This document shows, one piece after another, positions 40,728-44,231 of a DNA stretch of 64,000 nucleotides. The notes beneath the pieces are model-generated. The model was not told the DNA's origin. It ran no database searches and saw only the letters and a program-made list of their open reading frames with translations. Source of the DNA: Halobacteroides halobius DSM 5150. GTDB lineage: Bacteria > Bacillota > Halanaerobiia > Halobacteroidales > Halobacteroidaceae. Position numbers and translations under genes: made by a program. Position 1 is the stretch's first letter. The number at the start of each line of letters is the position of its first letter. The stretch spans positions 1,674,001-1,738,000 of the forward strand of contig NC_019978.1 of the NCBI RefSeq assembly GCF_000328625.1, read 5' to 3'.

Positions 40728-41786
40728 CTATAATCTATTAATCAATTCTAGATTATTTTCTCTACTCTTAACTGCTACTCGAATGAAGTCTTCTCCTAAA
40801 CCAGAGTAAGTATTACAATTTCGAACTAAAATACCTTGTTGGGCCAACTTTTCCTCTAATCTAGTAGAAGTTAAGTTACTATTTTCTAGATCAACCAAGA
40901 TATAATTAGCATGAGGATAATACACTTTAAATTTGGAAAATTGATTCAATTTTTGATATAAAAATTCTTTTTCTCGTAAGATAGCTTCCTCAGTCTGTTT
41001 GATATATTCCTTATCATTTAAAGCTTTTTCCCCAGCTAACTGGGCCAAGCAATTAACATTCCAGGGATCTTTGCTAGCATTTAACTTCTTAATTAATTCC
41101 TTATTAGTTGCTCCATAACCTAATCGTAGACCAGGAATGGCAAAGAACTTAGTCAACGAACGCAATACAAATAGATTATCATACTGCTTAACTAAATCAA
41201 TTACTGTTATATCTTCCTCTAAAAAATCAACAAAAGCTTCATCTACTACCAGAAAAGTATCTTGACTCGCAGCATAATTGATTATCTCAATTATATCTTC
41301 TCTCGTTATAAATTTTCCGGTAGGATTATTGGGGTTACATAAAAAGAAGATATCAATATTATCTAATCTAGGTAATAAATCATCTAGATTAAATCTAAAT
41401 CCTTCTTCTTTCTGTAGTTGAAACTCCTCTATACTTCCTCCCACACTCTCTATCGCCAATCTATACTCTGAAAAGGTAGGAGCTAAGACCAAAGCCTCTC
41501 TAGGTGATAATACTGTAGCCAACAAATAAATCAACTCTACTGCTCCATTACCAATTACTAAATTATCCTCTTCTAAATTTTCTTGCTTAGCTATTATAGT
41601 CTTTAGCTGATTACACTCCGGATCAGGATAATCCTTTATCCCCTTTAAGTTATTCTTAAGTGCCTTAGTTACTGATTCAGGTGGTCCTAAAAAATTTATA
41701 TTAGCACTAAAATCAATTATTTCAGCTGGATCTAAATTATACTCTTTAGCTGCTGCTCTAATATTTCCTCCATGATTCTGTTGCAC
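40728..41786 (-). CDS. cobD: threonine-phosphate decarboxylase / histidinol-phosphate-aminotransferase-like
   Basis: 352 residues. Fold-type I PLP enzyme. HGGNIRAAAKEYNLDPAEIIDFSANIN is typical of CobD, which decarboxylates threonine phosphate to the (R)-1-amino-2-propanol phosphate arm of cobalamin. The PLP lysine is in RSLTKFFAIPGLRLGYG. It pairs functionally with PduX, the threonine kinase immediately upstream, as expected for one pathway. Start chosen at GTG 41786; the frame runs farther into an IS end. Its GAGGAGGG ribosome site is inside the IS right end, a consequence of the insertion. Last gene of the cobalamin locus. Confidence 0.9.
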   Translation of the reverse strand: MQQNHGGNIRAAAKEYNLDPAEIIDFSANINFLGPPESVTKALKNNLKGIKDYPDPECNQLKTIIAKQENLEEDNLVIGNGAVELIYLLATVLSPREALVLAPTFSEYRLAIESVGGSIEEFQLQKEEGFRFNLDDLLPRLDNIDIFFLCNPNNPTGKFITREDIIEIINYAASQDTFLVVDEAFVDFLEEDITVIDLVKQYDNLFVLRSLTKFFAIPGLRLGYGATNKELIKKLNASKDPWNVNCLAQLAGEKALNDKEYIKQTEEAILREKEFLYQKLNQFSKFKVYYPHANYILVDLENSNLTSTRLEEKLAQQGILVRNCNTYSGLGEDFIRVAVKSRENNLELINRL

Positions 41787-41789
41787 AAT

Positions 41790-41892
41790 TTGACCCTCCT
41801 CGGGGCAAGCCACCGAGGATTCTTAGGCTGAGAGTGTAACCACTACTCATATCTCCTAAGCGTAACTTCCTGTCAGCCCGACAGTACATATC
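41790..41892 (-). ncRNA. predicted omega (reRNA) scaffold at the right end of the TnpB element
   Basis: The 3' end of tnpB and the right end normally encode the guide RNA. The non-coding part here folds into several hairpins on the minus strand: GTAC...GTAC, CTGTC-GGGCT-GACAG, CTTAGG...CCTAAG enclosing GAGT...ACTC, and the terminal CCTCGG/CCGAGG. The guide would be the flank starting ATTGTGCAACAG, i.e. the start of cobD. Predicted from position and structure only. Confidence 0.55.
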
Positions 41893-43005
41893 CTAAGTGG
41901 TACTTACCTTCATTTTTAATCCTTCGTTTAAAATATTTTTACTGGCATTAATATCTCGGTCGTGTATTTCTCCACATTCAGGACATTTCCACTTTCTAAC
42001 TTTTAAATCTTTAACTTCTTTATTTTTGTAGCCACAGTTGCTACATTTTTGACTACTAGCAAAAAAGGTATCTATCTTAACTAAATTTCTACCATACCAT
42101 TTTGCTTTGTATTCTAACAATTCAACAAATTTACTCCAGCTAGCGTCAGAAATACTTTTAGCTAAGTTAGAGTTTTTAAGCATGTTCTTCACTTTAAGTG
42201 TTTCTAAGCAAATTGTTTGATTTTCACGAATTAGCTTAGTTGACAATTTATGAAGAAAATCTAATCTGATATTTCTAACTTTTTCATATACCTTAGCTAA
42301 TTTCTTTTTAACTTTATGCCAATTATTAGAACCTTTTTCTTTTCTAGCTAAACTCCTATTTAATCTAGCTATCTTTCTCTCGTATTTCTTTAATACTCTA
42401 GAATTAGCTATTTTTTCACCATCAGAAATTATAGCAAAATCTTTTAACCCTAAATCTATTCCAATAGCATTATCTTTTTTAGGCAGTTCTTTAATATCTT
42501 CTTTAACTGCTATTGAAATATAATATTTATCTGTATTATTTCTAGTAACTGTAACATTTAATATTTCGCCTTTGATTTCTTTAGATTTTCTAAACTTAAT
42601 CCAACCTAGTTTAGGTAATTTAATTTTATTGTCTTTAATCTCAATATTAGTAGTTCCACTTTTTCTAGTAAATTTGTTAGTACGATAAGAGTTCTTTTTA
42701 TTTTTCTTAGACTTAAATTTAGGGAAACTATATTTTTTGTTAAAGAAATTCTTAAAAGCTCTGTCTAAGTCTTTAAGTGCATTCTGTAAAGCGAATTTAT
42801 CTGGCTCTTTTAACCATTCTAGTTCTTTCTTTAATTGAGTTAGTTGTTTAGAATATTTAGTATAAGTCTTATACTCATCTTCTTTTGCTTTATCTAAGAA
42901 ATGATTATAAACATATCTAGCGCAACCTACTGATTTATTGATTAATATTCTCTGTTCTTTATTAGGACATAATCTAAACCTATACGCTTTTTCTCTAACT
43001 ACCAT
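41893..43005 (-). CDS. tnpB: TnpB (OrfB) RNA-guided nuclease, intact
   Basis: 370 residues, full length. N-terminal helical and OrfB domain (about 1-170), RuvC I Asp184 (IGIDLGLKD), RuvC II Glu268 (TICLETLKV), zinc ribbon Cys321/324 and Cys341/344 (CSNC, CPEC), RuvC III Asp351 (DRDINASK). All three catalytic residues and all four zinc ligands are present, so the nuclease should be active. TnpB uses an RNA from its own right end to cut DNA next to a short TAM, favouring retention of the element. AGGAGGTG ribosome site. No TnpA accompanies it. Confidence 0.95.
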
Positions 43006-43099
43006 TTTTTCACCTCCTCTACTTAATATTATAGCATAAACTTAAATAAGTTGCAACATTAATATTTAAGTGTTATAATTAGTTTAGGAGGTGTTAATT

Positions 43100-43252
43100 A
43101 TGTCAGATTTAACTACTAGAAAAAGAATTACTACTACTTTAGATAAAGATTTAATTGATAAATTAGATAATCTTTCTAAAGAAACTAGAATACCTAAATC
43201 TAAATTATTTGATGAAGCTATTAAGGATTTACTTAAAAAGCATAAAGAATAA
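43100..43252 (+). CDS. ribbon-helix-helix (CopG-like) protein carried by the TnpB element
   Basis: 50 residues, ATG 43100 after TAGGAGGTG, TAA at 43250-43252. The pattern RKRITTTLDKDLIDKLDNLSKE then KSKLFDEAIKDLLKKH is a ribbon-helix-helix: one basic strand and two helices with the Leu and Ile positions of CopG/Arc. Divergent from tnpB across 94 bases, so it could repress tnpB or bind the left end. RHH genes accompanying TnpB are known in Bacillota elements; the role is not settled. Confidence 0.85.
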   Translation: MSDLTTRKRITTTLDKDLIDKLDNLSKETRIPKSKLFDEAIKDLLKKHKE

Positions 43253-43261
43253 AGTCAAGAC

Positions 43262-43338
43262 CGTCCACTCTTACCACAGGATATTACCAAGGGAAACCCT
43301 TGTTACGATAAATCCGCCACAGTGGTTTGCGAGTGGAC
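43262..43338. repeat. long hairpin at the left end of the TnpB element
   Basis: Closing arms GTCCACTC and GAGTGGAC, inner ACCAC/GTGGT pair, and a hairpin AGGG-AAA-CCCT in the centre. Such imperfect hairpins are the recognition structures of IS200/IS605 ends. Confidence 0.75.
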
Positions 43339-43349
43339 TTTAACTTTTA

Positions 43350-44231
43350 TCACCTCATTATTTGATGACCACCATTAATTATTCTAGTCCTAGTAATATA
43401 CTTTAAACTAGGTGTTTGACTTCTAATTCTAGCTAAAATAGAATTAACTCTTTCTTCTGAAGCTAAAATAACCCCTATTAAAGTACCACTATGGGCTATA
43501 TTAATTCCTAAAATTTCTTCTTCTTGCCTAGCTAACTTAATTAATCTTTTCAACTGAGGTTTGTATAAAATAGATTGATTGGCCAAGCTACTTATAGTAG
43601 TTCCTTTTCCAATTAACCTCATATCTTCTCTATTAATTCCCTGCGCAATCAATTGATAAGCTTTTCTTACTTTCTTTTCTTTCTCTAATTTTAATTTAGT
43701 TAGATTTTCTCTAGCATTGAACTTAATTGTATCTACCCCTCCTCCAACATCAAAAATTAAAATAGGAACAGACTTTATCTGACCTAAGTTTGTTAGAGGT
43801 TGACCCTGCAAATGATTAAAAGCTACTATCCCAGATAAAAAACAAGCATCAGTTGGTTCAATAGATATAGCTATCTTCCTAACTAATTGAATATTCACTT
43901 CTGCTCCTAAAATTATCATGGTAGCAATGATCCCAGCTACAATATCTGCTGTACTACTGGCCATCCCTTTACCTGCTAATAATTCAGATTTTAAACTAAC
44001 TTGCAGACCAATATCTGAGATATTAAAATACTCTAAAGTCTTCTCAATAGCAAGTACTGTCTTAGCTGCTGCTTGATTAATCTTAATATTAGATAAAGAA
44101 CTATCTCTTTTAACTGTTACATAACTATATCGATCAATTGGACAGCTAATCTGAAGGTCAACTCCATCAATTATCCCTTGCATTAATTCTCCACAAGTGC
44201 CAGGCACCTTAACTGTTACTTCTTGTGTCAT
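43350..44231 (-). CDS. pduX: L-threonine kinase PduX (GHMP family)
   Basis: 293 residues. Phosphorylates L-threonine, the substrate that CobD decarboxylates for the aminopropanol arm of cobalamin. GHMP motifs: VKVPGTCGELMQG at the N-terminus, LLAGKGMASSTADIVAG (ATP loop) and the C-terminal ILGINIAHSGTLIGVIL. AGAGGAGTAAG ribosome site. The stop at 43350 is 10-14 bases from the left end of the TnpB element, which separates pduX from cobD; before the insertion the two genes were almost abutting. Confidence 0.9.
   Translation of the reverse strand: MTQEVTVKVPGTCGELMQGIIDGVDLQISCPIDRYSYVTVKRDSSLSNIKINQAAAKTVLAIEKTLEYFNISDIGLQVSLKSELLAGKGMASSTADIVAGIIATMIILGAEVNIQLVRKIAISIEPTDACFLSGIVAFNHLQGQPLTNLGQIKSVPILIFDVGGGVDTIKFNARENLTKLKLEKEKKVRKAYQLIAQGINREDMRLIGKGTTISSLANQSILYKPQLKRLIKLARQEEEILGINIAHSGTLIGVILASEERVNSILARIRSQTPSLKYITRTRIINGGHQIMR

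What the first reader, a model, noticed from the sequence alone, without database searches (positions are those of the whole stretch)
41790..43339. TnpB-only element with divergent ribbon-helix-helix gene and predicted guide RNA
TnpB retains Asp184, Glu268, Asp351 and all four zinc Cys, yet no tnpA is present. A 50-residue RHH protein is encoded divergently across 94 bases, between tnpB and the left-end hairpin, where it could control tnpB or mark the element's end. The right end folds into several hairpins as expected for an omega RNA whose guide would be the start of cobD. A nuclease plus a dedicated small regulator, without a transposase, is a candidate domesticated or trans-mobilised system.
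Basis: partly seen in the sequence, partly recalled or inferred. Interest (0 to 1): 0.65.

Follow-up and report, generated by a model that had tools for sequence, protein, structure and literature searches.

The report
Self-regulated TnpB element, ribosome-site insertion
This is a small mobile DNA element that carries an RNA-guided DNA-cutting enzyme and its own on/off switch protein but no transposase, and it tends to land in the ribosome-binding site just upstream of a gene while bringing a replacement site, which probably makes its insertions nearly harmless.

Summary
The element spans 41790-43348 (1559 bp): an intact ISDra2-like tnpB, a conserved right-end guide RNA, and a divergent 50-aa ribbon-helix-helix (RHH) gene. 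It has no tnpA, and none was found in the whole genome. It is not domesticated. The same RHH-tnpB unit, with the same ends, sits at over a dozen other sites in Halobacteroidaceae and phage contigs; two copies in one genome differ at only 3 clear bases, so it has moved recently with no transposase of its own. Its ends obey the IS608 guide/cleavage pairing rule, and sister elements with TnpA have near-identical end hairpins, so mobilisation in trans is likely. The RHH gene is not incidental. RHH-tnpB pairs occur in at least four TnpB lineages, one with a Y1 tnpA in the RHH operon. All seven element types tested have divergent promoters sharing one -35 hexamer with 16-18-nt spacers (combined p = 7e-10 for six), which fits an autorepressor. 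Target/TAM is GTGAT, the end of a Shine-Dalgarno sequence. In 10 of 16 insertions a start codon lies 2-5 nt beyond the junction (intergenic GTGAT controls 10/79, p = 7e-5), and the right end supplies a new GGAGG at about 8-nt spacing, here for cobD. RHH function and Shine-Dalgarno replacement are inferred, not shown.

The parts
41790..43348 (-). whole element (1559 bp), tnpB sense; no tnpA, no target duplication
   Evidence: common boundaries in ten or more copies at different sites; empty site in 11 relatives
43349..43353 (-). target site / TAM GTGAT; contains the pduX stop codon TGA and is the 3' end of cobD's original Shine-Dalgarno (ATGAGGTGAT)
43263..43338 (.). left-end bipartite hairpin; outer stem 43263-43270 / 43331-43338
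   Evidence: DNA fold; same topology in sister elements with TnpA
43326..43329 (-). left guide G_L = CAAA, pairs with target TGAT by the IS608 rule
   Evidence: sister elements have AAAA with TTAT
43100..43252 (+). RHH (Arc/CopG-like) protein, 50 aa
   Evidence: Pfam RHH_3 5e-17; PHROG 'Arc-like repressor' 3.8e-17; dN/dS at most 0.15
43028..43079 (.). face-to-face promoters: tnpB -10 (43028-43033), one shared -35 TTGCAA (43051-43056), RHH -10 TATAAT (43074-43079), 17-nt spacers
   Evidence: p = 0.001 against dinucleotide shuffles
43038..43073 (.). inverted arms AAACTTAAATA / TATTTAAGTGT, one in each spacer: candidate RHH operator
   Evidence: an analogous inverted pair 24-25 bp apart in L032
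41893..43005 (-). TnpB, 370 aa, ISDra2-like RNA-guided nuclease
41790..41910 (-). omega/reRNA scaffold, overlapping the tnpB 3' end
   Evidence: hyperconserved, 4 compensated pairs; kept whole in 128-133-bp mini-elements L157 and L179
41797..41819 (-). right-end terminal hairpin TCCTCGG..CCGAGGA
41819..41822 (-). right guide G_R = GAAT, identical to IS608
41790..41793 (-). right cleavage site TCAA, identical to IS608; last base of the element is 41790
41795..41799 (-). GGAGG carried by the right end: replacement Shine-Dalgarno for cobD
   Evidence: anti-SD pairing -12.7 against -12.9 kcal/mol for the original site
41770..41789 (-). predicted 16-20-nt guide: cobD translation start region
   Evidence: position rule from PMC8612924; inferred
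40728..41786 (-). cobD, true start GTG 41786, 3 nt after the junction
   Evidence: TIGR01140 above cut-off; orthologues in relatives
43350..44231 (-). PduX-like GHMP kinase; its stop codon lies in the TAM

Best explanation
A non-autonomous IS200/IS605 element. A Y1 TnpA supplied by related elements moves its hairpin ends as single-stranded DNA into GTGAT (chosen by pairing with the CAAA guide). TnpB, using the right-end RNA whose guide is the downstream gene's start region, recuts the vacated site so the copy is restored. The RHH protein binds the short region between the two divergent promoters, which share one -35 box, and represses both itself and tnpB. Because GTGAT is the tail of a Shine-Dalgarno sequence and the right end ends in GGAGGGTCAA, insertion swaps the gene's ribosome-binding site for an equivalent one, so cobD and similar genes stay translated. 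Shown by sequence: the ends, target, lack of tnpA, conservation, promoter arrangement, and position of the new Shine-Dalgarno. Inferred: trans-mobilisation, nuclease activity, RHH repression, retained translation.
For: Identical ends at many sites in genomes and phage contigs. Two 1516-bp copies in one genome differ at 3 clear positions, with no tnpA inside. TCAA/GAAT equal IS608; CAAA-GTGAT here against AAAA-GTTAT in the TnpA-bearing sisters. tnpB and RHH dN/dS about 0.1 or lower in most pairs. RHH-tnpB pairs in at least four TnpB lineages, with RHH and Y1 tnpA overlapping by 4 nt in one. Shared -35 in 7 of 7 types, while 7 ordinary divergent pairs lack it. 10/16 insertions lie 2-5 nt before a start codon against 10/79 intergenic GTGAT sites. 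Empty site in relatives.
Against: No expression, binding or transposition data. The own genome has no TnpA, so the element cannot move there now. The right-end hairpin may hide part of GGAGG. Six of 16 insertions do not lie just upstream of a start codon, and survivor bias may inflate the rest. A non-orthologous RHH has replaced this one in some copies (L155, L181, L020), and L057 keeps tnpB with a deleted RHH gene.
Confidence: 0.72

Rival explanations
1. The RHH gene is an incidental passenger or decaying cargo with no link to tnpB.
For: RHH_3 proteins are common elsewhere on plasmids and phages; the nearest TnpBs on plasmids lack one.
Against: Conserved divergent pairing in at least four TnpB lineages, purifying selection, and the shared -35 promoter pair in all 7 types.
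Confidence: 0.07
2. The RHH protein mainly acts on transposition (binding left-end DNA or partnering TnpA) rather than on tnpB transcription.
For: In L031 RHH is in an operon with tnpA, and sister elements have another small RHH-like ORF just before tnpA. The RHH gene and left end form one hyperconserved block.
Against: The conserved feature between types is the promoter pair. In L155 and L181 this left end goes with a non-orthologous RHH, so RHH is not matched to the left end.
Confidence: 0.18
3. Domesticated RHH-TnpB module kept for a host function such as a TldR-like regulator of cobD.
For: No TnpA in this genome; tnpB, RHH and cobD all intact.
Against: Catalytic residues intact; perfect mobile ends; one insertion per site, not shared by relatives; recent copies elsewhere; presence in phage contigs.
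Confidence: 0.05
4. The Shine-Dalgarno association is a side effect of GTGAT targeting plus survival bias; the GGAGG in the right end is only hairpin sequence.
For: GTGAT is part of the Shine-Dalgarno consensus; insertions inside genes are lost.
Against: Excess over intergenic GTGAT sites (p = 7e-5); spacing falls at 7-10 nt; five of six TnpA-bearing-clade sister right ends pair more weakly with the anti-SD (-3.9 to -8.9; the sixth is -11.4).
Confidence: 0.25

Closest known systems
ISDra2 (Deinococcus radiodurans), IS200/IS605 family
   Same: TnpB by sequence (8h1j E = 2.7e-100), 3' right-end guide RNA, insertion 3' of a TGAT-type target with no duplication (PMC8612924)
   Different: no tnpA; RHH gene; GTGAT instead of TTGAT; Shine-Dalgarno in the right end
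IS608 (Helicobacter pylori)
   Same: right cleavage site TCAA and right guide GAAT identical; left guide and target obey the same pairing rule (PMC5934647)
   Different: left target GTGAT, not TTAC; no transposase
IS1341-type (tnpB-only) elements
   Same: tnpB without tnpA, with IS605-like ends
   Different: carries a conserved regulator and shows retargeting to Shine-Dalgarno sites
IStrons (IS plus group I intron, PMC4227781)
   Same: an IS that limits the harm of its insertion to the host gene
   Different: IStrons splice out of the RNA; this element appears to replace the ribosome-binding site
CopG/Arc-type repressors
   Same: RHH fold family; short self-regulated operators
   Different: encoded inside a tnpB element with a shared -35 divergent promoter

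Membership tests
IS200/IS605 element | subterminal hairpins with 5' guide tetranucleotides matching the cleavage sites | tested here: met
   GAAT/TCAA and CAAA/TGAT
IS200/IS605 element | no target duplication, insertion 3' of a fixed short target | tested here: met
IS200/IS605 element | own Y1 TnpA | tested here: not met
   none in the element or genome; hence filed as a non-autonomous, tnpB-only element
TnpB RNA-guided nuclease | RuvC DED and zinc finger | tested here: met
TnpB RNA-guided nuclease | right-end guide RNA expressed, TAM-dependent cleavage | not testable with these tools
   structure and conservation only
TldR (nuclease-dead TnpB repressor) | lost catalytic residues | tested here: not met
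   DED intact
CopG/Arc RHH repressor | RHH sequence family | tested here: met
CopG/Arc RHH repressor | binds its own promoter | not testable with these tools
   only inverted arms and promoter geometry
type II antitoxin | adjacent toxin gene | tested here: not met
   the neighbour is tnpB; no toxin ORF in the element

The most novel reading that the evidence does not exclude
Several TnpB lineages have independently acquired the same kind of dedicated RHH switch, wired through one shared -35 box that makes RHH and tnpB transcription mutually exclusive. One lineage has also retargeted itself, by a one-base change in its left DNA guide, into Shine-Dalgarno sites, and carries a Shine-Dalgarno in its right end so that insertions are translation-neutral.
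Probability: 0.5. Interest if true: 0.78.

Novelty: new variant of a known kind. Interest (0 to 1): 0.62.

Why it matters
How TnpB levels are held in check is an open question, and this gives a compact, directly testable regulator. It also suggests a new way for a transposon to spare its host: aim for the ribosome-binding site and bring a spare. The paired change of DNA guide and target in natural elements is independent evidence for the IS608 targeting rule. My searches of a full-text library found no description of an RHH-TnpB pair or of Shine-Dalgarno replacement by an IS, though subscription journals and bioRxiv are not covered.

Tried and rejected
Rfam search (nothing). RHH searches in plasmids and phages returned mainly unrelated RHH_3 genes. 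RHH_3 domains fused to a ParA-like ATPase (L040-L044) set aside as unrelated. L031 element ends could not be fixed, so its completeness rests on the gene layout. One small-sample control (2/11) gave only p = 0.047; the larger pool (10/79) gave 7e-5. The 5' flanks typed by hand for L020 and L021 were shortened, so their empty-site energies are not used. Copies in G140 are split by contig ends; only the RHH-tnpB 5' junction could be read.

Full report
WHAT IS THERE. The window lies in a 2.65-Mb Halanaerobiales genome (its size and relatives suggest Halobacteroides halobius; inference). Between a PduX-like kinase gene and cobD lies an insertion of 1559 bp, 41790-43348, reading on the minus strand: left-end hairpin, divergent RHH gene, 94-bp intergenic region, tnpB, right end. 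TnpB (370 aa) is intact, with D184, E268, D351 and two CxxC pairs, and is closest among solved structures, after an AI-designed nuclease, to ISDra2 TnpB. The RHH protein (50 aa, ATG 43100) belongs to RHH_3 and to the PHROG 'Arc-like repressor' family. No Y1 transposase was found in the genome. A second tnpB (66% identical, L007) keeps only the 3' remnant of tnpA (read), so both TnpB elements here are now without a transposase.

BOUNDARIES. Ten copies of the same unit at different places share the right end ...CCGAGGAGGGTCAA and the left start after (G/T)TGAT, and diverge outside. In 11 relatives pduX directly precedes cobD without the element; the closest (L189) reads AAGGAGATGAT-AGT-GTG, where the window reads ATGAGGTGAT [element] ATT-GTG. 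The pduX stop codon is part of the target, and the cobD start GTG at 41786 lies 3 nt beyond the junction. The ORF start at 41813 is an artefact.

MOBILITY WITHOUT TRANSPOSASE. IS608 cleaves at TCAA, set by the guide GAAT, and inserts after TTAC, set by AAAG (PMC5934647). This element has TCAA and GAAT at the right end, and CAAA with target TGAT at the left end. Sister elements (TnpB 56-67% identical) carry a small RHH-like ORF, tnpA and tnpB in one direction, have the same GGGCTTGCCC hairpin tips, and have AAAA with target TTAT. The left guide and target therefore differ together by one base in the way the IS608 rule predicts. In genome G010 two 1516-bp copies differ at 3 clear bases and sit at different GTGAT sites. 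Mini-elements exist with only the right end (L157, L179; 128-133 bp) or only a hairpin (L182, 52 bp). I infer mobilisation in trans by a related TnpA; which TnpA does it is not shown.

GUIDE RNA. The right end is about 90-95% identical between copies whose tnpB synonymous sites are near saturation (dS up to about 1), and four base pairs show two-sided compensating changes. The right-end-only mini-elements keep the whole scaffold although transposition needs only the terminal hairpin, which argues that the RNA itself is selected. Expression was not tested.

THE RHH GENE. Identity is 92-100% in the same element pairs whose TnpB is 85-93%; dN/dS is at most 0.15 for both. The low dS of RHH against tnpB means either exchange of the left-end/RHH block or constraint on its DNA. 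Exchange certainly happens: L155 and L181 combine this left end with a different RHH (MARPKNK...), and L020/L021 have that RHH with another left end. RHH_3-tnpB divergent pairs occur in at least four branches of the TnpB tree (window group; L017/L042; L109/L112; L031/L032) and in an unrelated multi-copy genome, G140. In L031 RHH is followed, overlapping by 4 nt, by a Y1 tnpA. A broad sample of 399 phylum genomes found the free-standing form in only a handful, and related plasmid TnpBs lack it, so it is rare and lineage-bound.

PROMOTERS. In the window, tnpB and RHH have -10 boxes TATAAT facing outward, each 17 nt from the same palindromic -35, TTGCAA (43028-43079). The same geometry (spacers 16-18 nt) is found in all seven element types tested, including those with TnpB only 24-39% identical. 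Individual shuffle p values are 0.001-0.014, and the combined p for six is 7e-10; the seventh (G140) gives 0.001, and seven ordinary divergent gene pairs give 0.1-0.98. The pattern was first noticed in the window and by eye in three others before the formal test; L109, L155 and G140 came later. Inverted arms lie in both spacers in the window and in L032 and are the best operator candidates. The short-spaced L020/L021 variant (39 bp) lacks the arrangement. The simplest reading is that RHH represses both promoters, and that the two promoters exclude each other.

SHINE-DALGARNO TARGETING. GTGAT is the end of the Shine-Dalgarno consensus AGGAGGTGAT. Of 16 insertions with readable right flanks, 10 have a start codon of an ORF of 50 aa or more 2-5 nt beyond the junction, against 16/419 GTGAT sites overall (p = 6e-10) and 10/79 intergenic ones (p = 7e-5) in 230 kb of related DNA. 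Genes include cobD, pth and mobA homologues (my reading of the translations; only cobD was checked against profiles) and phage genes. The right end carries GGAGG, 7-10 nt from those starts, with anti-SD pairing of -12.7 kcal/mol against -12.9 for the original cobD site; five of six sister right ends are weaker, -3.9 to -8.9, and one is -11.4. This suggests that insertion replaces the ribosome-binding site. Survivor bias remains possible, and no translation was measured.

VERDICT. A new variant of a known kind: a non-autonomous IS200/IS605 element with a dedicated regulator and apparently translation-neutral insertion.

Noticed in passing
L157 (2158-2178, - strand) and L179 (first junction): Guide-RNA-only mini-elements of 128-133 bp in phage contigs, each inserted 3-5 nt before an ATG; they could feed guide RNAs to TnpB in trans. 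L155, from the same metagenome as L157, carries a full element.
   Followed up: partly
L163, about position 1500 (G002:C6:79082-79104): A CRISPR-like spacer between repeats in a relative matches this element's terminal hairpin plus GGAGGGTCA, so CRISPR may target these elements or phages that carry them.
   Followed up: no
L063, L058, L064, L065, L071: TnpA-bearing sister elements have a 53-aa RHH-like ORF immediately upstream of tnpA; Pfam recognises it only weakly (RHH_1 E = 0.06).
   Followed up: partly
L007 (own genome C1:1575838-1576932): Second tnpB with tnpA reduced to its 3' remnant; its right end keeps TCAA.
   Followed up: yes
L057, 465-1498 (G007:C5): Tandem partial duplication: two right ends with the same flanking pilus-gene sequence, and an internally deleted RHH gene.
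   Followed up: no
L040, L041, L043, L044: RHH_3-like domain fused to the N-terminus of a ParA-like ATPase next to a ParB-like gene in other Bacillota.
   Followed up: no
window 43006-43348 compared with 41893-43005: The left-end/RHH/promoter block is 92-95% identical between copies while tnpB is 80-90%: modular exchange or DNA-level constraint, unresolved.
   Followed up: partly
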